From contig OY735212.1 in NCBI GenBank assembly GCA_963457665.1, forward strand, positions 3,315,897-3,379,896: DNA of 64,000 nucleotides, given 5' to 3'. Made by a program: the position numbers and the translations under genes. This DNA comes from Thysanoteuthis rhombus (lineage: Eukaryota; Mollusca; Cephalopoda; Oegopsida; Thysanoteuthidae). The notes beneath the pieces were generated by a model. The model was not told where the DNA came from. It made no database searches and saw nothing but the letters and a program-made list of their open reading frames with translations. Position 1 is the first letter of the stretch. The number at the start of each line of letters is the position of its first letter. Positions 35,138-63,942 of the stretch are shown piece after piece.

Positions 35138-35588
35138 ATTAGAGACAAAACACCAGCAATCACTGGCATCCACTTTCAATATTTCAGAATGAGTCAAATC
35201 GTTCCTGATCAGGAGCTCCCTTCCATTTCATTGAGTGATGATGAATTTTACTCTTCGATTGATGATGCACCGCAGCCCATTCCCTCTGATGACAAATACC
35301 TGTCACACCTATTGGAACAACGTAATCACCAATGCCTACAACAGTCCATGAAATTCCATTTTGGAACAACAGTGACCAATACACCAGAAACAGCCTCCCT
35401 TCTACCAGATATTATTCCAACACACTCCTCACCGGAACATTTGAAAGAATCGTGCCAAATCAGTTCTCAAGAAGAGCCAGATCAACTGGTCGCTGGCATT
35501 TCTAAGAGTAAAAGCTTTTTCTTTACTGGTCCTATGAAACCTTTTCCACTCAATAATCATCAAGGGTTCTACTTCCGAAATAGCTTAA
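35138..35588 (+). CDS. Pseudokinase exon 1 (first visible): start codon and acidic N-terminus
   Basis: The acceptor follows CTTTCTCTCTCTTTCAG and a consensus GTAAGT donor starts at 35,589. The chosen ATG is 35,189 (A at -3), giving [20 protein letters not shown] and 133 codons plus one base. The frame is open back to the acceptor, so an upstream coding exon cannot be excluded. If 35,189 is the start, 35,138-35,188 is 5' UTR and a non-coding exon lies upstream. The segment is rich in Ser, Asp, Glu and Pro and looks disordered. No domain recognised. Confidence 0.72.
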
Positions 35589-38377: not shown

Positions 38378-38409
<32 letters not shown>

Positions 38410-38482
38410 ACCTCACTGAAGCATTGTGATACAACGAAACAGCTATCTATGGATGACACAATCATCAATTATATATATATAA

Positions 38483-38575
<93 letters not shown>

Positions 38576-41500: not shown

Positions 41501-44500
41501 ATTGAGATGCTCATAGTGGCATTTTTATTAAATAGATAGATAGTTTATAACATATTTCATTGTTTCCTAGTTAGTGCCATCGTATTTCGAAGGGTTTGGG
41601 ATTTTGCGTACACCAAGTGGCACGTATATGTACCTTGACTCAAAATAAACCCACAAGAAATTCTGCCTGACTGAAGTTGATTAAGCATTGAGTAAATCAA
41701 CGAGAACCAACCAAGAAGTTTCTTTGATTTGAAATTCTGGCTAAATTGAAAGGATTTAATTACCATAATTATTTGTGCGTAATATGCACTTTTTCCCATA
41801 TTTTTAAACCTTTAACTTACATTGCATATTATTCCATTTCATACTTTTTTTCCCCAGCCAAGTGTGTAGCCATATTCGGGATAGCATGACCGAAAGTTAG
41901 TTATATCTGTTAGCTAACAAATGTATAACAAAGGGTTTAAAACTAAATGCTGGAGTTGTTTTGGATCTTTTATTCTTATTGATATTAAGCACAAGATTCA
42001 AGACTGTCCATGTCAAAGATAGATGCCTTGAATTCATCATTTATGTTAACAGCATAGTACAGTTGAACGTCTCAAATTTGAACATCTGAAACCTGATAAT
42101 GCCTTATTATTTATCATTATTCATAATTGATTTTTATACTTATATTATTTATAAAAGTGGTCATATACCATTCAAAATTCCATTTCAAATGTAGATGTAT
42201 TCAAATATAAAGTTTTTTCAAGATCTGAAAACAATATATAACTTCTAAATACAACCAAAAAAATCTAAATCTTGATGTAGAATGAAGATGTTTCACTTCT
42301 AAATTGAAGGACTGCAAAGACAAGCCATAAACAAGTGTAATTTCCAATTTTTCATGTTCTGTCTAAATCCAGCCAATCTACTAATTGTTGAAAAATGAAA
42401 TTCACTATGTTTACTACTATTTCCCAATATCAATGATTTATTTGCTTACTAATCAAATAACTACCAATCATCAACTACAACATATTGATATCTTGCCGAT
42501 AATTGAAGTAAACAAAAAACCTTAAATTTGAAATAGTTCCATTCCACTTAATAATCAATGTGAAATTTTTTTTCGTTTCTTCAGACAAAAATTTGGATGA
42601 TTGTCTTTCTTGCAAATTTGAAAAATATTGATTAAACATATTTTAAAAATAAGATGGCAATGCCTGTATTTTAAAACATTTTTTCATGTCGATACGAACC
42701 AGTATTATACATTTTTTCCCGGATTTCACTTTTGACTGCTGCTTTACATTGACCTGACCCTAGCTTTCGACACAGTGAGCAGCAAGAGTTTATGAGAAAT
42801 TCTAGCAAGCCTCTGCTGCTTACCCAAGATCTCCACCACCTCCAGCCAGCTCAATGAGGGTCAGTTCAGGCAGGTTTCTATCAGACAGAGTCCACATCTT
42901 CCATAGTAAAAAGCAGTGATATGTACTCTCCTCATATTGTTCTTCATCTTCTTCAGTATGATGTTCAGGGAAGCTGTGGACACCATTGTAGATGACATTA
43001 CATCCACTTTCTTGACAAACAGCAGCATCTTCAATATGAGGCGTCTGCTTGCTAAAACAGAGAACCTGGTGCAGCTGTGAGGAAAAAGTATCTAAAATGT
43101 CTGGAAAGGTTTATTCTAATGTACTTATAAAACTTCAAAATTTACTGAATTTAGATCAAAGATTAAATAATACAAAAATAAAAAAGATATTGAAACAAGA
43201 TAGTACATATAAAAGTTATGCAAAAAAGTCTGAAACCTCCTACCCGAATTCTGTCAATTATTTTGAAATAAACTTAAGATTTAGATTCTCCAGATATAGA
43301 GAATAGATGTTTCACTTGGATGTTTCCCAGTTGAAAAAACATCTAGATTTTCCAGAATCTAAATGTTTCTTCATTCTATTTTAGATGTTTTCCAGTTAAA
43401 AATGCCAGTGATGTCATAAATAGAATTAATTCTGACCATATTTATTCTTCAATAGAATTTTTTACGTGACTTCAAATTTTGACACTATGGTTGTTTAATT
43501 ATTGACTGTGATAGCAAGTTGTTTTCTATTCATCATGATTTGTTTTGTTATTGCTATTAATGATTATCAGAAAGTAAAGAAAATATTGCTTTTGACATGT
43601 TCAATAATACACTTCCTTTTCAAGAGGAAATATCTGCAAAAAGAGCTTCTAAATATGCAATGACCTAATAATGGATTTTTTTCTTTTTGTTTCATAGGTG
43701 ATGATTTATTCCGTAAACCTAAAGTTAATATTGTAAGTATTTTAACCACCTGATCTTTCTTCAATTTATCAGCCTATAATATGTTCTGGATCAAGAACAC
43801 TTATTGAGTGAACAAAAGATGAATATCAAAATTATTAAGTTTGGATAGAGTGCAGCAGAAGTAAATAAAACAACTATGGTTTAGGGTTGGTCATGTCGGT
43901 GCATGTTTGGTGCCAAATGTAAGCTTTGGAGGGCAGACAAAATTGATGATAAAAATATTAGGTTTTCAGAATTTCTGATAAGAGATTGCATACTTATAAA
44001 AGCTCTTTCCTTATTGATGATTTTGTTTTTCTTACTTGGTCATTTCAATTAGAACAAATCATGGATTTGATTAACGCATTTTCTATGTTGTACTTGTGGA
44101 AAATAGAAATTAAAAAAGCTTCTTGAGAATTGGTGAAGGGCATACCAGCATCTTGAAGATTGGTGGAGGGCACACTAGCTGCTTGAAGACAAGTGTAGGG
44201 CACACCAGCAACTTGAAGATTGGTGGAGGGTACACTAGCTTCTTGAAGACAGGTGTAGGGCACACCAGCATCTGGAAGATTGGTGGAGGGCAAACCAGCA
44301 TCTTGAAGATTGGTGGAGGGCACACAAGCTTCTTGAAGATTGGTGGAGGGTACACAAGCTTCTTGAAGATTGGTGGAGGGCACACAAGCTTCTTGAAGAT
44401 TGGTGGAGGGTACACTAGCTTCTTGAAGATTGGTGGAGGGACACACCAGCTTCTTGATGATGTTGGAGGGCACACCAGCTGCAGTATTCTAAAAACAACA

Positions 44501-46445
44501 AAGATGAAGATAGTCGTAGAATTATAACAATGCTTCATCCCACAGTTTTGTATTTTTCCTTTTGTACTTATTCCCTGTTTGTTTGTTTTTTGGTAGCCCA
44601 TTGAATGGCGATCAACTAAGTTGCCATCAGACAAGTTGGAAGCCTTGAAAAGAGCTTTTCTGTGTTTTTCCCAACGTTGCGATGATGAAGTTTGTGGAAA
44701 GGTAATTTCATTTTGTGACTTGAATCAACTTTTGTTGTAACTTGACAGACGGAGGTGGGGTATATGAGGGAGCTATATTTCTCGCTTGTTATACATTAAC
44801 AATGATATATTTATAGATACAAAAATTGCATGAATTTAATGATTTAACCACTGGGCTTGTTTATTTATTGCAAAGTTTCCTTGTTCATCAAATCTCACTA
44901 AATCTTAGAGGTGGGGCCCCTCAGAGAGCCCAGCCCCCACTCCTTCTAGCATCAGTGTGACTCATATTGATTGCTTTTTTCTATTTCTCCTTATCATTAT
45001 CTTTGCACAGGTAATATAAGGATTACCAATTAAGATAGTAATCTATTTCTGTGAACTGTTAACTACAATTTATAAATAAAATTCTATACCCAAAAAGTAT
45101 TTTCAGTTGGCAGTTCAATCTACAATGTAAGTTTATGCTAAAATGATCCCTCAGTTTGTTACGGCTACATTCAAGTCTGTTTTTAAAAAATTCAGACTTT
45201 TCTTAGTGATCGTATAGAGGAAAACAGTTGTTTTTTTTTTGTTTTTTTGAAAATTCCCCACCAAAATTATTGGGGGGGGGAGTGATTTACTATGTAAGTT
45301 CATGCTAAATTGATCCCTCAGTTTGTGTCCAGTAGCATTAACATTTTTTGACTCTTTAGTGATCCAACAAAAGGCAAGAGAAGTAACTTATTTATCGATC
45401 ACCCTTTTCTTTCAACTTTTTCAATGGATCATCCCCAACACAATATATTACCAAAATGATGTTGGTCACGTGACGATTTCTCTCGACTAACCAGACGTTT
45501 TTTTTTTTGGTGGGGGGATTTCATCATTTTTTCACAAAAAATTAACCAATTGTTGTCTTCTCTTCTTGAAGGGCAAACGTCTTTTAGATGAAATGAAGAA
45601 AAGGATTCAACAATTCAAAGTGGTTGACAGTGATGACAGACAAATTCTGGAATATATTCTCGAACATACCAATGACTGCACGGAATATTTTTGTATTTCA
45701 CCTGGATGTAACCTGATGGAAAAGTGAGTCTTGTAAACGATTTCTTTTTAGAAACGCTCAGCCAAAACTATATACGTAGGATTTCCTCATTTTTTCAAGC
45801 GAGTCTGGCCATATGCATGAGTCACATGTACAGGCCGTACAAAAGGAGCTAGAGGGCTGAAAATTTCAACATTTACTCCTCATTAGAAAAAACGATTTTT
45901 TGTGTGTTTTTTTTAGAATCAAGCCTTCCCCCCCCCATACCCACACACACACTAAAAAAAATGAGTTTTTAGGGAGAGGTTCAATCAACATTGTGAGTTT
46001 ATACTTAATTGGTCCTGTAGTTTGTGTCCAGGTGTGTTCCAGCTTATTTATTTGGTTCCATCTAAATTTGGAAAGAAGTAACTCATTCACTGATCACCGC
46101 TTTTTTCAAAAAATTTTTTATTGATCTCCTCCAACACGGCTTGCTACCAAAAGTCATTGGTCACGTGACCTGTTTACTGATTCAGTTTAAAATGGATTCT
46201 GAATTCATCATTTACTAATTCACTGATTTTATCTTATTTGATCGGACCAACCCATTCTCAGCAAACCATGTAGAACTGGCCATACCTTATTCAATACACA
46301 GGGTTGCCCTTGATTCATTTATTGCTAAATCAAAGCTGATATGTAGGATTCTTTATCACAAAAAAAAGCTATACAAGCACCAGTGACTGGATTGAATCCC
46401 AACTTTATATCCTGTTTTCCTTCCATTCAATTCAAAAGCTCCTGG

Positions 46446-46519
<74 letters not shown>

Positions 46520-48324
46520 TCATATATTGGATAAGATAAAGAAGTAAGAAATTCATTAGTCAAAATTAACAGAGAAATAGTAAGACTTACAGAGTTGAGC
46601 ATTTGAGGTGAGAAAAAAACTAATATTTTTCAATACATAATTCAGAACTCTTAAAACTCTTAAAGAATAATACATATTAGCTTTAAATAGATGCCAGTTT
46701 TAGGTTACATCTTATTATAGATACAAGATGTGGAGTGCCATAAGAGACCTATCCTGTTTTTTGAATACTCCCTAAACAGGGCTATGGTAAAACAGCTGAC
46801 AAACTCTATAATAAAGAATGAAATAAGAATTACAAATGAAACTATATTACATGCACCAAGAACCAAAAATTATATACTAAAATAGTTATAATACAACACA
46901 TTAAAATAACATTTGTGTAACATTTGGATACTTTGTGACTATATCTAAAATTGAACAAAAAATTGTTCTCTTTCAGCATTAAAAGATGAAAAGTTTACAT
47001 GACTATATATGTAGAGTGAGTCTATGAAGTTCTGAATCAATTTCAAAATTTAATGACTCAAATTATACAAATGATAGAACTATTCAGTATACATTATTTG
47101 AAAGTTCAACTTATGAAGTTTTATTCTTGATGCAATGTGTTGGGATCATCTAAGGTTTTAATTAAATATACATTTATGAAATTATTGTTGAAATGAACTT
47201 CAAGAATTGAACCTTCAAATAATATGTACTGAATAATTCTGTATTGTCCATAGAGGAATCATTAAAATACCAACTTTTGTTTGAACAGATTTCAATCTTC
47301 TTTCCATCTTTGATGTAGTGACAACATTTTGACCAATTCATTTCTCCAGCTCTCTTCTGGTGGAAATTGTAATATCTGCAAGAAAAGAAAGTCTCTCCAA
47401 ATGGTCTTTTCTTCAGAATCTTGCAGAAAATCCAAACGTAAAAAGCAATGCTTGTTAATATTCTCAATATTTCTATTCAAATGTTTTCTTTAATACAGCT
47501 TTTATTTTACTGTAAACCACTGGGAAGAACAGATTGGTTGGAAATACTCTCTTCCTTATGGATATTACTTTTCACTCTTGAAATGAATTGTCTGAAATGT
47601 CATCATCATTGATGAAGAGAAAAGTTCAAATTATCCAGAAAAGTGTTAGAAAAGTTCTATGTTTCATACAAATTGAGTCATCAAAATTTAAAACTATTGC
47701 ACTTTTCTATAGACACTGATTATTGTCAACCAAAACTGTCAGCACAAGTTTCTTTAGTTTTTGGTGGTTTTGGCTGGCAGACTGACAGGCTATCAATCTC
47801 TCCTACAGGTTAAAGCAATGGAGCTTGTGGCCTGAAAATTTATACATCAACTCTTTATTATGTCTATATTTTTATTTATTCTTTTTTCCTAATTCACTTC
47901 TATAAGTTTTTGGTGGGCAGGATTGAATTCACAATGTGAGTTTATGCTGAATTGGTCCCTTTGCTTGTATCTGGGAGAGTTCACATTTAATTTTTTTTGA
48001 ATTTTAGACTCTTTTGTGATCCAACAATAGGAAAGAGAATTAACTTATTCATTGATCACCCTTTTTTTAAATTGTTTAACCCCCCCCCCCCCAACACAAT
48101 ATGCTTCCAAAAGATGTTGGTCATGTGACAGTTTCTATTGAGAGACCAACCTGCATTTATAATGTTTCTTCAATTCCCTAATGATTCATTTGGTTTCTTT
48201 CAGGTCTGCTAATACACTGGCGGAACTAATTGACTGTATTAATAAAGATGACAAGAAACTCGAATATTCTACAAGTGCTAAATTTTTCAGGGTGAGTGCC
48301 TTAAGAAAGTATTCTGAAAAGAAA

Positions 48325-48366
<42 letters not shown>

Positions 48367-51300: not shown

Positions 51301-54300
51301 GTACATCTGTGTTTCAGGATTCCTTTCCGTTTTGTTAGTAAGGTTCTCGTAACTCAAGCTGCTGTTACGGATAACCAGGCTTCCTGAAGCAAAAGGGATA
51401 TGAGCTCGAGTCTTACCGAGAGCTCAAACTTCTTCTCTGATCTGCCCTGTTTACTAACCGGAAGGGATTGATGATCCAGGTTGTTTCGATGAAAAGTTGG
51501 GACAAACTCAACTCCAACTTCTGTTCTGGTTGAAGAGGATTACTGCAACTTTTATGTTGTAGATATAATGAATGAATTATAAAAATGTATATTTTTCTTA
51601 AAAAAATGGTTTTATTCGTTTGAGTGAAATAAGTCTCCTGGCGATCAGTTGGTTGTGAGTTCCAGTCATTGGGGAATGTGGGTTTTACTACCCTCATTTT
51701 GGTGAGGATTGTTCTTGTGGTTGTTACTGTAGGGAAAAAATGTAAGCACCAGACTTCGCACTGGGGTTTGATGAAAATTTGAATGGAGGACCTATCAGTC
51801 CAATATAAATAATAATTGTATGTTGTGTTTTTAACAGATTAGCCATAACCAGCTGAGAAAATATCCCATGTAAATCAGACACAATTTTCTTTGCTTGATT
51901 TTTTTTAGGCAGAATTACCAATTTAACACTCTTTGCTCAAAATTTGGACCATTTTTTGTTTGGCAGTGTAAAATTCACTAAAGTAGCATAACATTTTGGC
52001 TATTTAAAACTTTTTCAGCAACTTTTGGGTGAGTTTTAGCCATTTTTGGTTATTTTTTTTATGTAGCACTTTTTAGCCCTTTTTGGGCAGTCTAATGCTA
52101 AAATATATTTTGAGTTGACTGTTTCTATGAAGCAAAACAATTTAATTTCTCTTCTCTTTTTTTTCTATTTCTATTTTCAGTTTTCCAGCGATTGTTACAT
52201 GAAGTGCCCTAAGGATGTAATTGAAACCACAATTCACTCAATTAGCACACAAAATTCTATCATTATCTTTCAGAGCAACTCTAAATGGGCCAAAGTGACT
52301 GTGGTACAGATATATTTTCTTTTACTTTTATAGCTTTGTTTAGCTCTGCCAACCAAGTTAAAGAGATACAGAGAATCCTCTTTAAAACAAATTAATCAGC
52401 AGGGAGTGTCCATTTTAGCTAATTGTACAAATTAACCAATGGTAGTGTTTGATACTGTATACATATCCAATAGGAGAAAGTATTTACAATTCACACTGAA
52501 TATGATACATCATATAACTGTAAAAAATATGAGTAATTTATGAAATTAATCAACACATACTAATTAGTTCAGGTCTAATTAATTAAGATCTGACTCTGAG
52601 GTTGATTTGTTCTAGTCTAATTAATCAACATCTGACTCTTTTTAAAATCTATTGAGGGTTATAAGATAGTTTACTTCTAAATGTAGAGATGTAATTCTAC
52701 TAGTAATTTTGAATTGGTCCAGTTACGATATCATGAATGATGGTGATATTTCCTTCAGTCAGAAGGAAATTTAAGAATACAAAGAAATTATAAGCTCTAT
52801 GGAGTGGAGAAGATTTCTCTGACTTCTGATTCTCTTGTAGTAAAAGGAATAATCGATTATGTGATAATTCGTATGCAAAGAGGAAAAGAGTAAGAAATGC
52901 AATTCATAACACGAGAAAATTTATTTGCATAAAGAAGATATGGTAACAATTTATTTTTGGCTGCCTACAATTATGAAATGTTCCGATTCGTCACCCACTT
53001 GATTCAGATTTTGTCTGTTATATCTAGCTTCACAGGGTCCGTTTTAATGAGGGTCCACTGTATATGTAATACCCAGTGTCTGAGTGATTTCCCTGAAAGT
53101 TCTCTATAAATTTAGATGGAATTTTACGGAAGCTGAGGCCGAGAAGTGAGATAGTAGTGTATAGATTTGGGGGCTAATCCAATTTGTTTTCAATTGAGAA
53201 ATATTTTCTTCCTTTTTTTAATACATTTACTCTACGGCCTTCAGTTATCATCTGGTAGGTGTGGGGGAAGTAACGAACCGAACCCTTTATTTAACCAACG
53301 GGGATATATAGACCACACTCCCCTCTTAGCAGTAGTAGTATTTTCGAATTATTATTGTCTCACACTGGGATTGAACCTAGAACCATTAGATTAATTGCAG
53401 TAATTCTGTCTGATTCTCTAACCACTACGCTATGTGTCCATATGGAGTACAACGGCCAAAACGTTGTATGAAAAACAACCAAGATGAGGATAGTCCAAAT
53501 AATAATAGAAATAATGATAATACCTCATCTCAAAAATTCAGAGAAACATGTTCACTCGTGTCTGTCTACTCAATATCACTGAAAGTTCTCAATGAATTTC
53601 TATGGATTACTGTGCAGGGGAGGACAATATGCTGTGGGAGAACCGATTGAATTCTGGAGCTGTTGCATGCACAATTAGCTCCCTTGAGTCGTTATGCATA
53701 TAAATCAAATAATATTGCCAGATTTTCTGGTCAGTCTACAAGATACCTCCATGAGTTTTTTATGAATTTTTAATCAGAACTCGTGAAAGGTTGAACGATA
53801 GAATATAAAGAAATTGAATAAATTTTGGAGTGGATCGATGCACAATTACCTACTCTACATCACAGTTGTATGTCCAAATCATGTGGTATTGGCAAAATTT
53901 TGTGACTGTCCAAGCAATATCTTCAAAAGTTCTCAATAGATTTCAATTAGATTTTGTGTGAGGGTGGATAATAGACTATAGAAGAACTGAATAAATCTTG
54001 GGGTGGATCCATCCACAATCATGGCGTTCACAGAGATATCCATTCTCTGAATGCTTTCTGGTTAATTAATTTTCTATTCATTCCACTGATATGTCAATGA
54101 GTAAAGATGAATACCTTTTCCGCCAGACGAGATAGTTTTTGTTTGTCAAATGGAAAACACAAATGTAGTTTTACAAAAACACTATGAGACTTTTCAAAAA
54201 TCAAATTCATAAACTAGATGAAAAAATACTTTGAGCCTGAGTTTATCTGCACGTGTGAGCCACATTGTATTCACTGACCAATGGTCAAGCCATAAATGAC

Positions 54301-55058
54301 CCCTGAAAGTTTCAGTGAGCTCATGTCTACAGTTTGTTGTTGGGCATCGCTCGGAGCAGACATGTTTTCTTACCATGTTTTCAAAATGGTCACATCAATT
54401 AGAAATTTATTTGTGAAATTGAATGATATGGCTACCAAATCTTTTCATACGCTAACCAAAGTTTATCGGGGAGAATGCATTTCGCATACATGAGTGGCAC
54501 AATACTTATCAAGGGTCAAGAGGATGTTTTCTAATTTCTTTAGTTGATTACCCCAACATGGCACGCTGCCAAAAGACCTTGGTCACTTGATGATTTCTCT
54601 CGAATGACTGACCAAACCTGTTTTTTTTCTTTATACTATATGTCTACCTTACACACCAATATGTATATATTTGATAGAATGCCTGTAATTCACATAAAGT
54701 AGTTTTGATTTTTTTACCTTTTTAGGTATTATTGAAATATCAGAAACTGTCAATCCATATTGTCACCGTAGGTTTCTTCAGTTTTAAGCTGGTCTGGCTG
54801 ACTATGTATCCATCATTTGTACAAGCCGCAACAGTGGAGCTAGAGGGCTGAAAAAAAAATTTGGGTAATTAGATTCTTAGTGGAAGTGTGGGGTAGGTTT
54901 CAATTTACAATACAAGTTTACACTAAATTGATCCCTTCGTTTGTGTCTGGTGATGTACAGCCCAACAAAAAAGGGGAGAAGTAACTCGTTCTTAAATCAC
55001 CCCTTTTTTCCAATTGTCCAATTGATCACCCCCCTCCACACACACACACTCACACACA

Positions 55059-55099
<41 letters not shown>

Positions 55100-58000
55100 C
55101 ACTGGCTGTCAGAAAATATTTGTGACATTTTTCTATAGAGTGACTAACCAGACCGTTTTTTTTCTGAATTTTGTTCACGCAGCTTGGCAACTTGATGCAA
55201 GACATTTTACCGTTGTTAATCGAAATTGGAAACTTGAGTAATCACACCAACATTCTTCCAATTGACTGGTTGATTGATGATCAACAAACCATATTTTACA
55301 GTTCAGAATACTATGCAGGTAAGGGACACTGGGAAACCTTTAAACAGGCTTTCCATAAAGTTCTGCGTCAGGTTTTAAAGTTGAAACACCCAAATTATGC
55401 AAATGATAAAATTTCTTCTTAAGAATTGATTTTTGATTCTCATGACTCAATCGCTTAGTTGTTCTTCTCATGAGCAGAAGCCAAGAGCACATTTTGACCA
55501 ATTTTTCATAATCGCAATTCATGAATATTTTACTCTCAATTTTTGCTAATTGTATTTCAAATGCTTCTCCATCTCTTCCTTGTTTTTAAGGGAAGCACTT
55601 CGAATACAATCGGCAAAAATTTAAAATAAAACTCTCATGAATCGAGGTGAAGGAAATTTGATACCGCACTTGGACTTAGTTACACAGAGTATAGGCTGAA
55701 AAAAAAATTCTCATTATAATTAAAGCTACGGACATTTTCGGAACGTATCAACTACATTGTAGAAGACTTTTTATGATTTTTTAAAAGTTATGTAGTCCAA
55801 GGGGAATAACTCAAATTTTTGCTCGTGTTAAGGGAGTTAACTCTAGCTGACTGGTACTTTCTAAGTATCGATTTCAATGGTTCTCAACTTTTTTTTTTCG
55901 ATATGTGTCGATGAACGGTAAAAAACCGTGTAAAGACCATATTCGAGTAGGTTAACTGCGTTTGTAAGAAATTAAGTGACCCTGAGACGGAACGGTCAAA
56001 AATAGTCATCCTTGAAAAAAAAAAGAAAACTGTTATCGTATTAGTTGGGTTGGGTATAATAAGAGAGAAAAAGAAATTATTATTTGTTTACATCACACCA
56101 TATCAAATTCCTCTTTTAAAAATCCATTTTCAAGGAAGAAGAAATAGAAGAGACAATACAAGAAAGAGAGAAGAGCAAAAAAGCAGTTTAAATTGTGTTT
56201 AAAACGATTGTATAATCTATTTCTTAATACATGTATATATTTATTACAAAATGGACATATTTGGTCTGACAGAATGAATTGTGAATTGCGTTATATTACA
56301 TAGAAACTCATGTAAATAGAATGCTCTCACCATTGAGTTACTTTGGTGTTATTTGGGCTTTTGCATTACCAGCGACTGTTCAGCTCAATGGTAGGAACAT
56401 CGCTATGTTGAAGCAGTTACCCTATCGCTGACTGGCTCGATTCCTGCAGTAGATCCATTTTCTTTAATTATATATTCTATTAACGTTGTCTAAAATTGAG
56501 TGATATATTAACCATGTAACAACAGGAGATCATTTCAAATAAGTTTCCGTTTCTTGACTGGAATCGATGGACTGTGTGAAGAAAACCATCTGTTGGTTTG
56601 ATGTTCAGAAAGACATCAATCGATAATACATGTGAAGTAACCTGGTCATCCAGTGCATTCAAACCAGGGAAGTCCAACCTGTTATCAAAGATTATGAGAG
56701 GTTGGCAACGGACGGGGTTGGGAATGTATTCCTGAGATGTATACTTAACTGGGCTGTAGGAAGTGGGTTATGATAAATCACTCAAATGGAATAAAGAAGG
56801 AGAAAAAGTTGACAAAATAACACAACCACATCTACACCTCCGTGCAACACTTCAAGTGTAAGAGGAAGATTTTCTTTTAAATCGTTCTGCCTCTTTTCAC
56901 TTTCAATAAGTTTACTCAGTGAGAAGGCAAGTTGAGTGGAGTTGCCAGATCGGGTGACGGTAGGAAATAATCCACTCTTTATCTCCAAGACTTACCCAAC
57001 ACAGGCATTCAAATAATTATGAATTTGCAAATCGAGCACGTCTGGAGGCAGAGATTCAGTACCAGCCTCAAGTCTTGCATCTTTATTTTGAGGCTGGTAT
57101 TGAACCTCTTTCTCCAGATATGCTCAATTTTCAAATTTGGTACTATTCCAATGTCTGTGTGGGGTAAGTCTTGGAGAGATGAAGTTTGGATTATTTCCCT
57201 GTTTAACCTGATCTGGCAGTCCTGGAGTTGTTTTGCGTTTCCTCTTCTTATTCTGTCATTTCTTCTTATTGTTAACTTTGTTTTGTCTTCTGTCTCTTTC
57301 CAGAACCTCTCAAGTGCAAGTTTGATATCATCAACATGAACAGAAAACAAATTATTTTACAGTTGATTGAAGCTGCCCTCTACCTTAATGCAAATGGGGT
57401 GGCTTTCTTAGCATGGACAAGTGAGTTCTGTCTTCTTTCTTTTCCTCTACCTAATTCATGGCAAAATCAATCAGTCCCAAACAAATTTTGTATTAGTTTT
57501 TTATAATGTAATGTTGTGATGAATCAATTTTTATTATATAATGTTGTGATGAATTAAATTTCATTATATAATGTTGAGATGAATTAATTTTTTATTATAT
57601 AATATTGTAATGATTTCAAATCGCTGTCATAGTTATTAATTGAACAACTGTAGCATAAAAATTTAGAGTGATGTAAAAAAAAATTCCATCAAAAATGAAT
57701 ATGGTCATATATTCTGTTTATGACATCACTTGCATTTTCCACTGGAAAATAACTAAAATAGAGTTAAAGAAAAAATCCAGGAATATCCAGATGATAAAAC
57801 CCATCAAAGTAAGGCCTTGGAAAATTCAAAAAAGCTTTTTTTCCAAACATTTCTTGAAGGCGTGTAGTGGAGTAGTGATGCCAATTTTCAAGTTTGTAAA
57901 CAAAACGGTGTGGCCAGGAGCACTGGAATACACACACACAAGCATATATAAAAAAGATAGAACCCTTCACCTCTTTGGTTGCGACAGCTGTTCAACAAAA

Positions 58001-61000
58001 AAACAATTATTGTAAATTTATAACAATAAATGTAAATTGCGATTTAAAAGTCTCTTCTGATGAACTTGATAAACACCTTCCTCTGGATATCAATTGATTT
58101 CACATCTCTTATCATAATCTCTCCTTCTTCTTATACCAGGTGATAACATCTACTGGAAGAATGGTATAGTAAGGTTGACTAACTTCCACATGGGATCAGC
58201 ATTATATCATGATTTTGACCCGGGAGTCATCAAATCCCTTTTGTTTCCAACGATTGTTCCACCTGAGGTCAGTGATTCTATCAATTCATTTCCATCTACG
58301 GGCATCCCTCGATAAAGTATGATTTGTTACAGACTGGTTCAATATACCAGGAAGGTGGGTCGTGGACCCCAACATTTCTGACTCCATCATCGACCGTTCT
58401 TCCCGGATATGGCGAATAAAGATGAATTTCATCAAAAGACTTGATAAGACTGAAATATCAAATTTCCAACAAGTATCTATGTGGAGTTTTACAAGTAATT
58501 TCTTTGATTTTTTTTGATGAAAACAGTGGGGAATTTGTATCTGACTTTTGATTATTGACGTCCATTGTGTCATGGTTGTCTCTCTTTGACCCCAACACCC
58601 ATGAATTTGCTTAGACTCAGCTGAGAAGCTGTGCTAAAAAATCCACACCAGGACAAATCCATGCAAAAATCAACAAAATTTTAATTTTTGTAATCTATTC
58701 TTTCAACTTAATGGTTTGTTTCTCCGAACTGAGTTACCAAATTGAAGCATAGACGTTAATTAATTCATCCAAAAAATTTGACTCAAAAAATAATTTCAAT
58801 TTTTGTATCTTAATAAATTGTTTTGACACCATAAAATATTCTTGCTGATCTCTGTGTAGATTCATCGTATGCAGATTGGTCCAGGTGAATTAGTTACTGC
58901 AGGTTGGTTTTGCGCAGAAATATTGGTGAAACCTAGATAAACATCCTTAGAATAACGTTTTATTGTCTTGGATAGAAAATGAATTCATTCGGCAGTTTTA
59001 AGACTTATCAGCTGGAATATAGAGAAGAATTCTGGAAAAATATATTAATAAAATGTGCCTGGTAAATGTTTCTCTGTACTGATAATCATATGATTTTTGA
59101 TCAAGTTTCATACATTTTTATAACTTGAATTACTGTGTATTTTAATGTTAATTATGTACAGGGATGCCCATGAAGTTAATTTTATTTGATAAATAATAAT
59201 GAATAAATAAAATCCTTTTACCAGTTCTCATCTGGGCTTAATCTTTGTATTTTTCAGCTCCACTCGCAAGACACCAATCTAGAGAAGGCTGATGTATGGG
59301 GTGTTTGCTGCTTATTTTATGAACTTCTCACTCGCGAAGTTGTCCACTCTCATCTGTTACATATGGAAAGAAATGTTGTGTGGAGAAAGGTAAGAGGATT
59401 GTATTGCTTAAAACAATGGTTCCCAACCTTTCTGTCCTGTTTACCCCTGGCAACTTTTCAAATTTATTTCCACCCTGTTTTGTACAGTAATTTCAGTTTA
59501 CACTGCTGACGTATTAATATTATGGGGATAAGATACTTGACAAATATATGAATTAAATAAGAATGGGAAAATATTTTTCAAATAATTCATTCTACTGACT
59601 TATTTCGACTAAGATCGTTAGCTAAGTTTACAATTCTAATGAAATGTCTTCTTCTAAATGTTATCATGCATCTGTATGAATAGGAAGAAAACTTTTCATT
59701 AAAATTCACGACCTTGACAACGACATTAATTAAACTAGTCAGTAGAACGGATCATTTGAAAAATATTTTCCCATTCTTATTTGATTTAAATACTTCTAAT
59801 GTAATCAATTATCCAACAATGGAGGAATTTTAAAACACTGTCCTTGAAATTATTATTCTGATTTGTGCAAATGGATAATACATTTCATACTTTGCTTTTT
59901 CCAGAGTTATTCACCCCTGAATTAGATTACTTTATTGGCCACACAGTGATTAAGTATAAAATACAGATTGTTAAATCCTAAATTTTTCAAAAAACAGGCT
60001 TACTTCAATTCTTCTTCTCAACTTCAGTTTGTTTTTTCCGAAATTATCATTCAACCAAAAAATATATTCGAATGCAGAATCAGTAAATTTACCTCTGATT
60101 GGGCAAAATTTATCCACTAGGGATGAATTTACTCCACTTTGACAACCCCTGGCTTAAAATAAAAGTTATATGGGGGTATTGGTAGCTTTATAGTTAGCAA
60201 GATAAGGGATGGAATAGGTGAATTCGTTCCATCTTCTCAGGCAGGGTTGTAAGACTATTTAGTGTCAGTACTTTGAGCAGAGAAGTGCTCGACAATACTC
60301 TGACAGGGGTCCATACATCCTGAGAAATGATATGTGCAATCTTTAATCTCTGTCTCATCCCAAGACCCTTCAAGAGACAGAACCCTACCCCATTGATATG
60401 GATGGAGATAAAGTTAATAATCTTTAATAATTAATCACTAGTGCTTGCTATAAAGGTTCTTGCATCCTGGATTAAAAGAAGGAAACTCCAAACAGTAATT
60501 CATAATTCTTTGGATAAGCACTTCTTTGGCTACTATCTTTGGATTGTAATACAACTGCTTTGAGAACCTGCGTATTTGGAACTGTGATTAATCATGACCG
60601 ACATTCATGTGAATAATTACCAATACTATTGCATACCAATGTGGCGATGCTCATTAGTTTTTTGGTCTTAGCAACTGTGTGATACTAGACCCAAGTACAA
60701 ACCTTATTCTCAGATCTGGCAAAAGGTAACCCTGACACAATTGCTGCTGTAATGTAACATCGGTTTGTTTGCACTATCAGAAACTGGTCTCAAGAATCTC
60801 TGTTTAGTCATATGGATTGAATTCGAGTCACCCAATACCAATATAACACCATTTACTCTAAATACCTCATCTAAACTGGATGATCAAATTATAGAACTAG
60901 CTGACAAAAGCCAAAGCAAAGACAGGGGTTCTCAGCCAAGCAGCAGAGTCAGCCCTTGTTGAGTGAAACCTCATCAGCAGCAGGCTTTGTACCATCTGAC

Positions 61001-61791
61001 TTAGAAACACCTATGTGCATCAAGTATGTTCAACAGATACAGAATTGATTCTACAAGAAATCTTTCTATTATGATTGTGTACACTCCTACTGATGTGGAT
61101 ACAGCTGATAGTAAGCATAGATTCTATGCTGAACTGGAGTCAGCCTCCTCAAGGGTACCAACATTGATATACTTATTGTGGCTGGTGATTTTAATGCTCA
61201 AATTGGCAGTAGTTCAATCTTCTCACTGATATTGGCACGTTGTTCAATGAGTAGCAAAAACACAGTGTTTGTCACAAGAATTTGATATTCTCTTTAAACC
61301 TGCCAGGAAAAAAATATCAGCGAGTACCATCAACATAGGTTTCTTCAGTTTTTAAGATATTCTACCAAACTGGCTGTGTTTCAGCCCTTCAGCTCTATTA
61401 ATGTATGTTGAGTTTTACCGAAAATTCCTCACCAAAATAAGTTTTTAGTGCATGTGTCTGTGGGGGATCTAATTTACAATGTAAGTCTATGATAAATTGA
61501 TCCCTTAGTTTGTGTCTGGTAGCATTTATGCTTGTTTCTTTTTTCTTTTTTTTTTTAAATTTGTGCTCTTTAGTGATCACTGCCCAAGAAAAATCGGGGG
61601 AAGAAACTATTCATTGATCACCTCTTTTTTCCAATTTTTCATTTGATCTCCCCTAGTATGGCAAATGCAAAAACGTTGGTCATGTGACTAATCAGATCTG
61701 TCTTCTTTTGTAGTTGGATGAAAATGGCTGGAGACCCAAATGCACGTTCTCTGATCCTGATCTTCAGAGTATTTTTGATGAAGGCTGGCAG
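35138..61791 (+). CDS. Divergent pseudokinase gene, 11 exons visible, 3' incomplete
   Basis: Eleven exons with AG..GT borders join without a stop into 498 codons: 35,189-35,588; 43,698-43,732; 44,597-44,701; 45,572-45,723; 48,204-48,291; 52,181-52,303; 55,183-55,318; 57,304-57,420; 58,140-58,267; 59,258-59,389; 61,714-61,791. Phases match at all ten junctions. Residues ~1-260 are unrecognised and rich in Ser/Asp at the start. Residues ~290-498 follow a kinase fold: WAKVTVL for beta-3 (Thr300 where Lys is expected), HTNILPI after helix [15 protein letters not shown] for the catalytic loop (HRD becomes F381-L-A383; Asn388 kept), VRLTNFHMG (DFG becomes NFH), PPE428, and [13 protein letters not shown] (Asp440 kept). 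This pattern predicts loss of phosphotransfer, with a scaffold or allosteric role inferred. Subdomain XI is absent, so more exons lie beyond the window. The family assignment is open (TKL/TK-like by feel). Confidence 0.78.
36151..36358. repeat. Two tandem 104-bp units
   Basis: TGTGTGATTGAAAATGTCCT at 36,151 recurs at 36,255, followed by TTCACTTAGTTGTCTCA.GCT in both. Inside, TGTCTCACGCT-like 11-mers repeat further. Confidence 0.92.
36893..37295 (+). repeat. Dispersed repeat family A, forward copy inside intron 1
   Basis: Starts AACAGGGTTGGTCAGTCACT, contains AATAAACTTACATTGCAAAT and CCAGCCAGCCAGACCAACTT, and ends AACCTGAAGAAACC..GTTTACAGTTTCTAAT. Confidence 0.72.
37664..37745 (+). repeat. 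tRNA-like pol III unit (SINE head or tRNA pseudogene)
   Basis: GTAGCCAAGTGGTTAA fits an A box and GATCAAGTTCAAACTCTGAC a B box, about 35 bases apart as in tRNA. The stems do not pair well, so this is not an active tRNA. Confidence 0.6.
38346..38568. repeat. (AT)n microsatellite cluster
   Basis: AT-rich simple tracts at 38,346-38,409 and 38,471-38,568, with AAATATAT interruptions. Confidence 0.95.
39215..39440. repeat. Two diverged tandem units of ~115 bp
   Basis: CAATTTGATCAAAAGTTTAT..TCAAAACATGGAT and the AATTGAACAAAAGTTTATAT..CTAAACATGGATCAAA copy both continue into TA.TCAAAGTGAAA. One more relative lies at 32,830-32,870. Confidence 0.55.
39560..40370. mobile_element. Pogo/Tigger-like terminal fragments
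   Basis: ACAGTAGATTTTTGTACAGC..GGGACACAACTGGAGTA at 39,561 and CCAGTAGATTCTTGGTTATC..AGGACACAACTGGAGTA at 40,265 are copies of one terminus in the same orientation. The CAGTAGA..GGTTATC start resembles pogo-type ends. No transposase seen. Confidence 0.4.
40534..40605. repeat. Four 18-bp tandem units
   Basis: AATCTCTTGGATATTTTT repeated four times without a mismatch. Confidence 0.97.
40865..41540 (+). mobile_element. CR1/L2/jockey-type LINE 3' end
   Basis: Broken frames read [18 protein letters not shown], then [12 protein letters not shown] (the WN.LP block typical of LINE C-termini), ending in AAATAGATAGATAG. The last 200 bp match 58,955-59,205. It is dead. Confidence 0.65.
42735..43075 (+). 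mobile_element. LINE reverse transcriptase palm fragment
   Basis: [14 protein letters not shown] is motif A of a LINE reverse transcriptase. It is followed in shifted frames by [24 protein letters not shown] and [16 protein letters not shown]. Stops and indels mark it as inactive. It lies outside the coverage of family L and may be a second family. Confidence 0.75.
43310..43545 (+). repeat. Dispersed repeat family C, partial
   Basis: TAGATTTTCCAGAATCTAAA, TTCTGACCATATTTATTCTT and TTTTGACACTATGGTTG align with 24,500-24,640. It ends ~150 bp before exon 2. Confidence 0.6.
43698..43732 (+). CDS. Pseudokinase exon 2, 35-nt microexon
   Basis: Bordered by TTTGTTTCATAG and a GTAAGT donor. Two bases complete the split Ser codon from exon 1, then [11 protein letters not shown] follows, ending in phase 0. 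It is separated from exon 1 by an 8.1-kb intron. Phase agreement on both sides and consensus borders support it despite its small size. Confidence 0.65.
44119..44482. repeat. 30-bp minisatellite, ~12 units, in intron 2
   Basis: Unit TTCTTGAAGATTGGTGGAGG plus GCACACCAGC, with GTGTAGGG and TACACTAGC variants. The length is a multiple of three, so both strands stay open (frames 44,045-44,634). These are artefacts of periodicity. Confidence 0.93.
44597..44701 (+). CDS. Pseudokinase exon 3
   Basis: 105 nt, phase 0 at both ends: [17 protein letters not shown] to DDEVCGK. The acceptor is TTTTTTGGTAG and the donor GTAATT. Charged and helical-looking, with four cysteines shared with exon 4. No domain recognised. 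A 30-bp minisatellite ends ~115 bp upstream. Confidence 0.78.
45100..45505 (-). repeat. Family A repeat(s) ending upstream of exon 4
   Basis: A truncated piece (45,100-45,235, CTACAATGTAAGTTTATGCT) is followed by a second piece (45,270-45,505, TGTAAGTTCATGCTAAATTG to CTCGACTAACCAGACG) that terminates in poly-T, 70 bp before exon 4. Confidence 0.7.
45572..45723 (+). CDS. Pseudokinase exon 4
   Basis: 152 nt from phase 0 to phase 2: [20 protein letters not shown] through [11 protein letters not shown]. The acceptor follows TCTTCTCTTCTTGAAG and the donor is GTGAGT. Helical charged segment, then a Cys-containing stretch (DCTEYFC, PGC). A family A repeat ends about 70 bp upstream. Confidence 0.82.
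45785..46190 (-). repeat. Family A repeat in intron 4
   Basis: Runs from GAGTCTGGCCATATGC through GCTAGAGGGCTGAAAATTTC, GTGAGTTTATACTTAATTGG and TTGCTACCAAAAG to CACGTGACCTGTT. Confidence 0.7.
46451..46519. repeat. (AT)n microsatellite in intron 4
   Basis: About 34 AT units. The 46,520-47,700 stretch after it shows no feature; minus-strand frames at 47,174-47,480 are unrecognised. Confidence 0.95.
47700..48158 (-). repeat. Family A repeat ending upstream of exon 5
   Basis: Begins ACCAAAACTGTCAGCACAAG, includes TTGGCTGGCAGACTGAC and GTGAGTTTATGCTGAATTGG, and ends CTATTGAGAGACCAACCTGC about 45 bp before exon 5. Confidence 0.7.
48204..48291 (+). CDS. Pseudokinase exon 5
   Basis: 88 nt: one base completes Lys231, then [18 protein letters not shown] to AKFFR, phase 0 at the end. 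The acceptor is TTTCTTTCAG and the donor GTGAGT. A family A copy ends ~45 bp upstream and an (AT)n run starts 37 bp downstream. Confidence 0.82.
48328..48363. repeat. (AT)n microsatellite just inside intron 5
   Basis: About 18 AT units. The adjoining frames 48,181-48,432 and 48,186-48,395 owe their Tyr-Ile runs to it. Confidence 0.95.
48364..49388. other. Intron 5, first part: nothing recognised
   Basis: Includes overlapping short frames at 48,392-48,940 without motifs and a pyrimidine-rich (CTTT)n-like stretch at 49,035-49,160. Confidence 0.5.
49389..49724. repeat. 24-bp minisatellite in intron 5
   Basis: About 14 units of GTGTGTACTTGTGGGTACTT plus CAGT with small length variants. Three overlapping open frames here (93-123 codons) are repeat artefacts. 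Confidence 0.93.
49725..50484. other. Intron 5, middle part: nothing recognised
   Basis: AT-rich unique-looking sequence with no domain, RNA gene or repeat match in the window. Confidence 0.5.
50485..50690 (-). repeat. Family A repeat, partial
   Basis: Carries TTGGTTTGGCTGGCTGCTTA, CTGAGCTGAAAGTTTAAATA and TTCTTTATTATAACCTG, only the first half in this orientation. Confidence 0.55.
50935..51045 (+). mobile_element. Possible LINE 3' tail with (ATT)n end
   Basis: GTCTGTGCGGGACAAAGCTT followed by AAATCATAAATTATTATTAT resembles the untranslated end and short A/T tail of a LINE. No coding part is left. Confidence 0.3.
51344..51510 (+). repeat. SINE-like repeat family D, copy 2
   Basis: Partner of 2375-2560. 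GAGCTCGAGTCTTACC could be a B box. An upstream segment (51,085-51,185) is a diverged relative of the 337-bp duplication. Confidence 0.45.
52181..52303 (+). CDS. Pseudokinase exon 6: kinase N-lobe strands
   Basis: 123 nt, phase 0 to 0: [20 protein letters not shown] through [15 protein letters not shown]. The acceptor TTCTATTTTCAG is strong. The donor GTACAG is weak, and GTGGTA three bases earlier is an in-frame alternative. The last residues, joined to exon 7 as WAKVTVL, occupy the beta-3 position where kinases have VAVKVL, with Thr instead of Lys. No glycine-rich loop is visible. Confidence 0.75.
52367..53062. mobile_element. ~0.7-kb pogo/Tigger-like non-autonomous element
   Basis: Ends are TACAGAGAATCCTCTTTAAA on the left and, inverted, TACAGTGGACCCTCATTAAA on the right (19 of 25 terminal bases agree), both with TA at the border. 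There is no open frame, so it is a MITE-like derivative inside intron 6. Confidence 0.6.
53362..53441 (-). repeat. tRNA-derived SINE head, antisense
   Basis: The reverse complement reads GGACACATAGCGTAGTGGTT with AGAG (A box) and, about 40 bases on, GGTTCTAGGTTCAATCCCAG (B box). The sequence between 53,241 and 53,361 probably forms its body. Confidence 0.7.
54296..54495 (+). mobile_element. Mariner-type transposase N-terminal remnant
   Basis: The frame ends [20 protein letters not shown] then [11 protein letters not shown] and a stop, resembling the N-terminal block I.FC.KL...A.E....L.E.YG.E..S.T of mariner/SETMAR-type transposases. Related to 21,330-21,560 (-). Truncated right after. Confidence 0.6.
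54525..55158 (-). repeat. Two family A pieces ending upstream of exon 7
   Basis: 54,525-54,625 is a terminal fragment (CACGCTGCCAAAAGACCTTG to GACCAAACCTG). 54,735-55,158 is fuller: AGAAACTGTCAA, GGTTTCTTCAGTTTTAAGCT, GGAGCTAGAGGGCTGAAAA, GTTTACACTAAATTGATCCC, and the end AGTGACTAACCAGACCG plus poly-T. The (CA)n at 55,037-55,099 lies inside it. Confidence 0.7.
55037..55099. repeat. (CA)n microsatellite
   Basis: About 30 CA units with two interruptions. Confidence 0.95.
55183..55318 (+). CDS. Pseudokinase exon 7: helix C to hinge
   Basis: 136 nt, phase 0 to 1: [16 protein letters not shown], then [14 protein letters not shown] and [17 protein letters not shown] matches the H.NI segment after helix C, and IFYSSEYY fits beta-5/hinge. 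Glu315 could be the helix C glutamate, but spacing is two short. The donor is GTAAGG. The acceptor TTGTTCACGCAG lies just after the end of a family A repeat. Confidence 0.82.
55319..56371. other. Intron 7, first part: nothing recognised
   Basis: AT-rich. The frame 55,171-55,422 is exon 7 read through its donor. Confidence 0.55.
56372..56456 (+). repeat. tRNA-like pol III unit
   Basis: TTCAGCTCAATGGTAGGAAC fits an A box and ACTGGCTCGATTCCTGCAGT a B box, at tRNA-like spacing. Acceptor stem pairing is poor, so SINE or pseudogene is more likely than a working tRNA. Confidence 0.55.
57022..57137. repeat. Imperfect inverted repeat, 50-bp arms, 16-bp loop
   Basis: Arms 57,022-57,071 and 57,088-57,137 pair at roughly 42 of 50 positions (ATACCAGCCTCAA and its complement next to the loop). 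Similar frames therefore occur on both strands. It lies ~165 bp before exon 8. Confidence 0.85.
57304..57420 (+). CDS. Pseudokinase exon 8: helix E and degenerate HRD loop
   Basis: 117 nt, phase 2 in and 1 out: [16 protein letters not shown], then [24 protein letters not shown]....V matches helix E, and FLA occupies the HRD position, so the catalytic base is lost. The acceptor is GTCTCTTTCCAG and the donor GTGAGT. An imperfect 50-bp inverted repeat lies ~165 bp upstream. Confidence 0.82.
57498..57615. repeat. ~35-bp tandem repeat, 3-4 units
   Basis: TTATATAATGTTGTGATGAA with ATTAATTTTT recurs with small changes in intron 8. Confidence 0.85.
57655..58010 (-). repeat. Dispersed repeat family C, antisense
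   Basis: Reverse complement of the 24,255-24,630 copy, including the (AC)n and TGGCCAGGAGCACTGGAA blocks. The 57,695-58,015 frame falls inside it and is not a gene. It ends 130 bp before exon 9. Confidence 0.65.
58140..58267 (+). CDS. Pseudokinase exon 9: degenerate DFG and APE
   Basis: 128 nt, ending in phase 0: [20 protein letters not shown], then [16 protein letters not shown] and PTIVPPE. DNI..K.G.VRLTNF aligns with ..NIL.....KLTDFG, with the metal-binding Asp replaced by Asn400. The acceptor is TTCTTATACCAG and the donor GTCAGT. Confidence 0.83.
58268..58954. other. Intron 9, first part: nothing recognised
   Basis: AT-rich. The minus-strand frame 58,286-58,573 lacks motifs. Confidence 0.5.
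58955..59205 (+). mobile_element. CR1/L2-type LINE 3' tail
   Basis: AAAATGTGCCTGGTAAATGT, TGTACTGATAA and TTACTGTGTATTTTAATG match the end of the 40,865-41,540 copy. Ends in AAATAATAATGAATAA 50 bp before exon 10. Confidence 0.6.
59258..59389 (+). CDS. Pseudokinase exon 10: subdomain IX
   Basis: 132 nt, phase 0 to 0: [18 protein letters not shown], then [14 protein letters not shown] to [21 protein letters not shown] matches DVWS.G..LYELLT, the most convincing kinase block, with Cys in place of the conserved Gly. The acceptor is GTATTTTTCAG and the donor GTAAGA. Confidence 0.87.
59390..60754. other. Intron 10, first part: nothing recognised
   Basis: AT-rich without clear open frames or repeat partners in the window. 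Confidence 0.5.
60755..61240 (+). mobile_element. LINE AP-endonuclease domain fragment
   Basis: Broken frames read LSETGLKNL (the ..Q.ET.L block), then [20 protein letters not shown] with [19 protein letters not shown] and, shifted, [23 protein letters not shown] is the catalytic block of LINE apurinic endonucleases. Inactive. Confidence 0.8.
61305..61697 (-). repeat. Family A repeat abutting exon 11
   Basis: Contains ACATAGGTTTCTTCAGTTTT, AATGTAAGTCTATGATAAAT, TTAGTTTGTGTCTGGTAGCA and GTGATCACTGCCCAAGAAAA, and ends TGTGACTAATCAGATCTGTC, 17 bases before the exon. Confidence 0.72.
61714..61791 (+). CDS. Pseudokinase exon 11 (last visible)
   Basis: 78 nt, phase 0 to 0: [16 protein letters not shown] and [13 protein letters not shown]....P.L..I...W resembles the segment before the final RP motif of TK/TKL kinases, so a further exon is expected. 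The acceptor TCTTCTTTTGTAG sits ~22 bases after a branch-point-like CTAAT within a family A terminus. The donor GTTTGT is moderate. If it were unused, the frame would run to a stop at 61,965. Confidence 0.75.
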
Positions 61792-62070: not shown

Positions 62071-62325
62071 TCAAGTGGATAGGGCGGATGGCTACCCTGT
62101 TATTGGGTGCCATGAAATGACGGGAGACAAGCGATAGGTCTCGGCACAAATTTTGTTGCAATGTGTCCCATGTGTGACAAAATGCATCAAATATACCGGA
62201 TGATATGTAAAACATCATAGATAGTTCATCTACGGTCTGCAGGGATAGACTGGCATATTTTTTCTGCATTTCCTGGTGTTGTACACATTGACGGTCAAAC
62301 AGACTGGTCATCATCCACTGCTGTG

Positions 62326-63771: not shown

Positions 63772-63942
63772 ACTTTTTGCTTTCTAAGCTTCCATACATT
63801 AAAAAATATGGACTTTAGGTCAGTAGATTTAAATGCTGCAGAAGATTCGTCTTTCCAAATAATGTAATGATTAAGAAAATTATTGTTAAAAGATGATTGT
63901 CAAAAAACCCGTTCCAACCGAGGATGATTACAACAACTTTTT

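What the first reader, a model, noticed from the sequence alone, without database searches (positions are those of the whole stretch)
35138..61791. Divergent pseudokinase reconstructed from eleven phase-consistent exons
All ten junctions agree in phase and give 498 stop-free codons. The C-terminal half follows the kinase fold (H.NI, helix E, ..DNI..K, DVW..C..YELL) yet Lys, HRD-Asp and DFG-Asp are all replaced (Thr300, Ala383, Asn400). The first ~260 residues match nothing I recognise. It may be a lineage-specific or very fast evolving pseudokinase.
Basis: partly seen in the sequence, partly recalled or inferred. Interest (0 to 1): 0.85.

Follow-up and report, generated by a model that had tools for sequence, protein, structure and literature searches.

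The report
Divergent dead protein kinase gene
This stretch of what is probably a squid-like genome holds a real but very unusual gene whose protein looks like a signalling enzyme (a protein kinase) that has lost its working parts, and which may carry a zinc-binding module in front, so it probably works as a docking platform rather than as an enzyme.

Summary
Confirmed and extended. A 12th exon just beyond the window ends it with a stop, giving 521 aa. Two unnamed public proteins (P0001, P0002; 61% and 56% identical) follow it through the kinase region. They include exon 6, which my first query lacked, and lack a spurious exon I had added. Pfam Pkinase and PK_Tyr_Ser-Thr pass their cut-offs, Pkinase by 0.3 bits.

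All three proteins share the losses (FLAWT..N for HRDLKxxN, NFH for DFG) and keep PPE, DVWG and the subdomain XI Arg: a conserved dead pseudokinase. No second copy was found in the genome. Kinase group unresolved.

New: residues 158-226 resemble a CBP/p300 TAZ2 zinc finger. Seven Cys/His sit at TAZ2 spacing, but Pfam zf-TAZ is below cut-off.

Weak points: exons 1-3 have no homologue; P0001's ORF seems to start in another frame at the exon 3/4 join; AlphaFold models are low confidence; 'Lys replaced by Thr300' depends on the alignment, because invariant K298 is two residues away.

The parts
35138..35588 (+). exon 1 (acceptor 35138; ATG 35189; codes residues 1-134, probably disordered)
   Evidence: strong acceptor and GTAAGT donor, highest coding score of the + strand candidates scored; no homologue found for residues 1-180
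43698..43732 (+). exon 2, 35 nt, residues 134-145
   Evidence: needed for phase; one of 2 single-exon candidates that passed the splice thresholds; no homologue, least certain exon
44597..44701 (+). exon 3, residues 146-180; holds the Cys-x4-Cys-x4-Cys (C168, C173, C178) that aligns with TAZ2 zinc site 1
   Evidence: splice sites; TAZ2 spacing; not covered by a relative
45572..45723 (+). exon 4, residues 181-231; holds H212-x3-C216-x4-C221-x4-C226, aligning with TAZ2 zinc site 3
   Evidence: P0001 covers it and keeps all four ligands
48204..48291 (+). exon 5, residues 231-260, linker between the TAZ-like region and the N-lobe
   Evidence: P0001 and P0002 colinear
52181..52303 (+). exon 6, residues 261-301, N-lobe beta strands; W296, K298, T300 invariant
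   Evidence: absent from the first query yet present in both relatives
55183..55318 (+). exon 7, residues 302-347, alphaC and H322-x-N-I motif
57304..57420 (+). exon 8, residues 347-386, alphaE and degenerate catalytic loop FLAWT (A383 in place of HRD Asp)
   Evidence: invariant in three proteins
58140..58267 (+). exon 9, residues 386-428, N388 kept, NFHMG (N400) in place of DFG, PPE motif
59258..59389 (+). exon 10, residues 429-472, DVWG alphaF
   Evidence: Pfam Pkinase match spans residues 316-513
61714..61791 (+). exon 11, residues 473-498, alphaG/alphaH region; the stop-bearing exon 12 lies outside the window (would be 64772-64843)

Best explanation
A real 12-exon gene of what is probably a coleoid cephalopod, with no second copy found, codes for a 521-aa protein. 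It has a probably disordered N-terminus, a TAZ2-like zinc-binding helical module (about residues 158-226) and a catalytically dead protein-kinase domain (about 280-521). It most likely works without catalysis: the zinc-stabilised module binds a short amphipathic peptide of a partner, and the pseudokinase domain, unable to transfer phosphate, serves as a scaffold or allosteric platform. Shown here: the gene structure from exon 4 on, kinase-family membership, conserved loss of catalytic residues, and conserved structural residues. Suggested by sub-threshold sequence evidence: the TAZ-like module. Inferred: exons 1-3, zinc and peptide binding, and the scaffold role.
For: Gene model in phase with GT-AG introns and a stop. 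Colinear relatives at 61% and 56% identity. Pfam PF00069 and PF07714 above cut-off. Invariant FLAWT..N and NFHMGSAL against kept P426-P427-E428, D440, W442, G443 and the R of subdomain XI. TAZ: zf-TAZ is the best Pfam family for the 119-residue segment, E 0.0085; alignment score 56 to the own genome's CBP-type TAZ2, reached by 1 of 2000 shuffles; 7 Cys/His at TAZ2 ligand positions at one offset, 0 of 40000 shuffles; hhalign P 1.6e-4, probability 50. TAZ domains mainly recognise proteins (PMC12547938, passages).
Against: zf-TAZ scores 16.9 bits against a cut-off of 25, and its E-value depends on how much I gave: 0.95 for 521 aa, 0.055 for 260 aa, 0.0085 for 119 aa. TAZ1 matches less well (67, 27 and 97 of 2000 shuffles reach the scores of its two exon pieces and their join). 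The own-genome search with zf-TAZ listed three places, none of them this gene. Zinc site 2 is missing and the site 1 His is Arg. P0001's segment gave no TAZ match, and its ORF seems to start at the exon 3/4 join in a different frame, so site 1 is not shown to be conserved. A DED profile also matches weakly (E 0.35). No homologue for residues 1-180. AlphaFold models are low confidence. No expression, binding or localisation data.
Confidence: 0.55

Rival explanations
1. Dead pseudokinase scaffold as above, but the Cys/His pattern in the N-terminal half is coincidence; the region is another small helical domain (for example death-fold-like) or merely a helical linker.
For: zf-TAZ below its cut-off, DED weakly matched, P0001 segment without a TAZ match; site 2 ligands absent; zf-TAZ search of the own genome does not list this gene.
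Against: Seven ligands at TAZ2 spacing over 59 residues, 0 of 40000 shuffles; the HCCC of site 3 is conserved in P0001.
Confidence: 0.35
2. The kinase part is right but exons 1-3 are wrongly joined: the true N-terminus differs, or translation starts further down as in the called ORFs of P0001 and P0002.
For: No homologue for residues 1-180; exon 2 is one of 2 single-exon candidates; P0001 starts MKFVKR, close to MKFVER, which our exon 3 end gives in the +1 frame.
Against: Exon 1 has the best coding score of the + strand candidates and good splice sites; the exon 3/4 join gives TAZ2 spacing; the +1 frame of our exon 3 holds a stop.
Confidence: 0.25
3. An enzyme after all: the kinase fold catalyses phosphotransfer by substitute residues, or another reaction, as some pseudokinases do.
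For: K298 and N388 are invariant; the bacterial pseudokinase SidJ catalyses protein polyglutamylation (title of PMC6858067, search listing).
Against: HRD Asp, the Lys after it and both DFG Asp and Gly are replaced in all three proteins; no Gly loop or alphaC Glu seen by eye.
Confidence: 0.07
4. A decaying pseudogene of an ordinary kinase.
For: Catalytic motifs lost; no second copy found; no named homologue.
Against: Intact 521-codon frame, 11 GT-AG introns, relatives with the same losses at 56-61% identity.
Confidence: 0.03

Closest known systems
Protein kinase superfamily, PF00069 / PF07714
   Same: HxNI, PPE, DVWG, subdomain XI Arg; profile scores above cut-off
   Different: no Gly loop seen, HRD Asp to Ala, DFG to NFH; group unresolved, best PDB profile hits mixed: NEK1 9.2e-6, IGF1R 2.4e-4, MAP3K2 3.4e-4
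STK40 / Tribbles pseudokinases
   Same: STK40's degenerate DFG reads TNFCL (Table 1 of PMC7586955, passages), close to TNFHM here
   Different: they keep the catalytic-loop Asp (same table) that is Ala here; no STK40 or TRIB chain among the 60 rows shown of 304 and 218; similarity probably convergent; no direct comparison was made
EphA10 / EphB6 type pseudokinases
   Same: lack canonical VAIK, HRD and DFG motifs (PMC7586955, passages)
   Different: those are receptors; no receptor part seen here
TAZ2 zinc finger of CBP/p300
   Same: 7 Cys/His at TAZ2 spacing, site 3 HCCC intact
   Different: site 2 lost, site 1 His replaced by Arg, Pfam cut-off not met, joined to a pseudokinase
MLKL and IRAK2/IRAK3
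   Same: N-terminal helical module plus pseudokinase (recalled)
   Different: no MLKL N-terminal or Death-domain match in Pfam up to E 1 for the 521-aa protein; a death effector domain matched the 119-aa segment at E 0.35 only

Membership tests
Protein kinase superfamily | profile score above curated cut-off | tested here: met
   PF00069 32.0/31.7 and PF07714 27.5/23.1 bits; P0001 36.0 and 36.0 bits, P0002 31.4 (just below) and 38.3 bits
Protein kinase superfamily | C-lobe structural residues (APE Glu, alphaF Asp, subdomain XI Arg) | tested here: met
   E428, D440, W442, G443 invariant; R of the last motif in all three
Protein kinase superfamily | bilobal fold in a confident model | tested here: inconclusive
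   mean pLDDT 43.4 and 44.6; Foldseek best E 1.1e-3 and 1.8e-4, the 50 rows shown of 1812 and 829 name kinases, TM below 0.25
Pseudokinase | HRD Asp replaced | tested here: met
   A383, invariant in three
Pseudokinase | DFG Asp replaced | tested here: met
   N400-F401-H402 invariant
Pseudokinase | beta3 Lys replaced | tested here: inconclusive
   T300 or K298 depending on register; both invariant
TAZ zinc finger (PF02135) | profile score above curated cut-off | tested here: not met
   16.9 against 25 bits, E 0.0085 on 119 aa; E 0.055 on 260 aa and 0.95 on 521 aa
TAZ zinc finger (PF02135) | three zinc sites | tested here: not met
   site 3 complete, site 1 three of four, site 2 none (the twelve ligand positions were set by me from the recalled HCCC motif)
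STK40 / Tribbles | catalytic-loop Asp kept | tested here: not met
   A383 against Table 1 of PMC7586955 (passages)
MLKL / IRAK | N-terminal four-helix bundle or Death domain | tested here: not met
   no such Pfam match up to E 1 for the 521-aa protein

The most novel reading that the evidence does not exclude
A lineage-restricted, probably cephalopod signalling protein that joins a TAZ2-like, coactivator-type zinc module to a dead kinase: a domain pairing that I found described nowhere in the searches named, which could compete with or mimic CBP/p300 for transactivation-domain peptides, with the pseudokinase as its regulatory or docking partner.
Probability: 0.25. Interest if true: 0.7.

Novelty: new variant of a known kind. 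Interest (0 to 1): 0.45.

Why it matters
The pseudokinases in the paper listings I saw come from vertebrates, plants, fungi, bacteria and a poxvirus. A conserved, apparently lineage-restricted one in a probable cephalopod, with its HRD and DFG motifs degraded and a possible TAZ-type zinc module, would be a new natural example of a kinase fold re-used for docking. It also shows that a gene with no named relative can be recovered from splice logic alone.

Tried and rejected
Exon 60672-60725 (in phase, moderate sites) was in my first query; both relatives lack it, so I dropped it. Exon 42957-43076 was rejected: wrong phase with exon 1, and the stronger coding signal there lies on the other strand. 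Upstream exons 5' of 35138 were sought and none convincing found. A second genomic copy: besides ten places of the gene's own exons the search listed three places, E 0.35, 2.7 and 5.2; the first was read and is a short stretch with stops, taken as chance, the other two were not read. N-terminal homologues: none. Kinase group: PDB hits mixed, left unresolved (60 rows shown of 133, 304 and 218). PDB search with the N-terminal segment: two hits at E 1.1 and 1.8, neither TAZ. NCBIfam gave nothing useful. Rfam none, tRNA none. A first regular-expression search for exon 12 missed it. Two TAZ scripts failed or read the wrong strand. AlphaFold on P0001 and P0002 with shallow alignments: too low in confidence to use. 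Papers: searches for pseudokinase with cephalopod (3 papers), kinome/octopus/pseudokinase (459, 20 listed), TAZ zinc finger with pseudokinase (0), TAZ domain with kinase domain architecture and mollusc (13), pseudokinase with mollusc and kinome (2), zf-TAZ with Pkinase (59, 20 listed): none of the titles and abstract starts listed describes this protein or this pairing. Only open-licence PMC papers are held, so this is not proof of absence. PMC6341066 was looked at in passages only and is unrelated.

Full report
What was checked. The window is 64 kb of contig C15 of a 2.73 Gb animal genome. The frame is still open at 61791. In the 20 kb fetched downstream the C-terminal tails of the relatives pointed to one place far above the rest (score 43; next best other place 20): an exon after TTTGCAG at what would be window position 64772, coding EHPQYRSTLIKLKSHILDYKNDL and a stop. 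The joined 12-exon frame reads 521 aa and its eleven introns are GT-AG.

Independent support. The first protein search used a 330-aa draft that lacked exon 52181-52303 and wrongly contained 60672-60725. Of 700 candidates two scored E up to 10: P0001 (E 2.4e-96) and P0002 (E 2.4e-72), both unnamed. Their sequences hold the counterpart of exon 52181-52303 at the right place and go straight from exon 10 to exon 11. In the alignment with the 498-aa model they are 61% and 56% identical. P0001 covers 7 of the 10 junctions, P0002 6. A profile of the three found no further member at E up to 1 among 6761 candidates. How well that database covers spliced animal genes is unknown to me, so rarity is weakly tested.

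Kinase identity. Pfam on the 521-aa protein: PF00069 32.0 bits (cut-off 31.7) over 316-513, PF07714 27.5 bits (cut-off 23.1) over 360-513. P0001 passes both, P0002 passes PF07714 and is 0.3 bits short for PF00069. Motif reading (canonical motifs recalled): H322-x-N-I kept; the catalytic loop HRDLKxxN reads F-L-A-W-T-x-x-N, so the catalytic Asp and the Lys are gone while N388 stays; DFG reads N-F-H; P-P-E and D-V-W-G are kept, as is the subdomain XI Arg. These replacements are identical in all three proteins: fixed, not decay. By counting back from H322 the alphaC Glu position is hydrophobic (inference).

Structure. Two AlphaFold jobs on P0001 and P0002 with 10 and 9 rows gave mean pLDDT 43.4 and 44.6, too low to trust. 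The order of elements (strands, alphaC, two strands, alphaE, two strands, alphaF to alphaI) reads to me as that of a kinase. The 50 Foldseek rows listed for each model (of 1812 and 829 with E up to 10) carry kinase titles, best E 1.1e-3 and 1.8e-4, but TM-scores are below 0.25. This is supportive only.

The N-terminal half. Residues 1-180 have no homologue at E up to 1 (24 candidates). On a 119-residue segment Pfam's best family is zf-TAZ, E 0.0085, 16.9 bits against a cut-off of 25; on 260 aa it gives E 0.055 and on 521 aa 0.95. The own-genome search with zf-TAZ lists three places at E up to 1, none of them this gene. The strongest of them, L018, matches p300 and CBP TAZ2 chains in the PDB and aligns to our segment at score 56, reached by 1 of 2000 shuffles; the two TAZ1 exon pieces and their join score 33, 31 and 33, reached by 67, 27 and 97 of 2000. 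Without any gap, C168, C173, C178, H212, C216, C221 and C226 fall on seven of twelve TAZ2 ligand positions, which I set from the recalled HCCC motif; 0 of 40000 shuffles reach seven, 6 reach six. hhalign gives P 1.6e-4, probability 50. Site 3 is complete and conserved in P0001; site 1 has Arg for His; site 2 is gone. TAZ domains are four-helix bundles with three zinc atoms that recognise proteins (PMC12547938, passages). I therefore call it TAZ-like, not a TAZ member. The spacing spans the exon 3/4 junction and so also supports that junction in this genome. Against it: P0001's called ORF begins MKFVKR, close to MKFVER, which our exon 3 end gives in the +1 frame.

Copy number and lineage. The 498-aa model hits ten places of its own locus (exon 2 was not detected) and three others at E 0.35, 2.7 and 5.2; the first was read and holds stops. 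The search scores only its best candidates. A reflectin-like repeat query typed from recall hit 110 places, about 31 of them within C45:37.25-37.58 Mb, best E 6.6e-5. With the simple repeats and contigs numbered to at least 48 with matches tens of Mb along, this suggests a coleoid cephalopod, probably a decapod. The label is an inference. The species of P0001 and P0002 are unknown.

How it most likely works. With catalytic Asp, the Lys after it and the DFG Asp and Gly gone in all three proteins, phosphotransfer is unlikely; retained C-lobe residues argue for a stable fold. Pseudokinases such as Tribbles serve as regulated scaffolds (PMC7586955, passages). A zinc-stabilised helical module in front would offer a second binding surface. 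The scaffold role and any link to transactivation-domain peptides are inference.

Verdict. Novelty lies in a conserved, apparently lineage-restricted pseudokinase and, if real, in its pairing with a TAZ-like zinc module.

Noticed in passing
L017 2668..7734 (-), and 12 of 148 matches with open frames of 1671-1720 aa: The own genome holds a set of long open frames of about 1700 aa with a kinase-homology match. The one read looks like a receptor guanylate cyclase without introns (signal peptide, long ectodomain, Cys-rich repeats, kinase-homology, cyclase; judged by eye), which suggests an intronless receptor-cyclase expansion.
   Followed up: partly
62318-63773: A 42-bp minisatellite, 34.7 copies at 95% match, lies in intron 11 and is open in two frames for 424 and 484 codons; the Pfam matches of the 484-codon frame (DUF7138, MULE) look like repeat artefacts.
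   Followed up: partly
11390-11764 and 24722-25141 (+): Weak reverse-transcriptase (RVT_1) matches below cut-off, probably decayed retroelements.
   Followed up: no
42824-43074 (-): An open, coding-looking stretch on the minus strand inside intron 1, perhaps a transposon fragment; its sense-strand shadow mimics an exon.
   Followed up: no
P0001 start versus window 44680-44701: The first residues of P0001 (MKFV) equal our exon 3 end read in the +1 frame, so the relative's transcript may hold exon 3 in a different frame from the kinase: frame shift, other acceptor or assembly error.
   Followed up: partly
G000:C45:37.25-37.58 Mb: A cluster of reflectin-like repeat matches, many in open frames of about 300 aa or more.
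   Followed up: no
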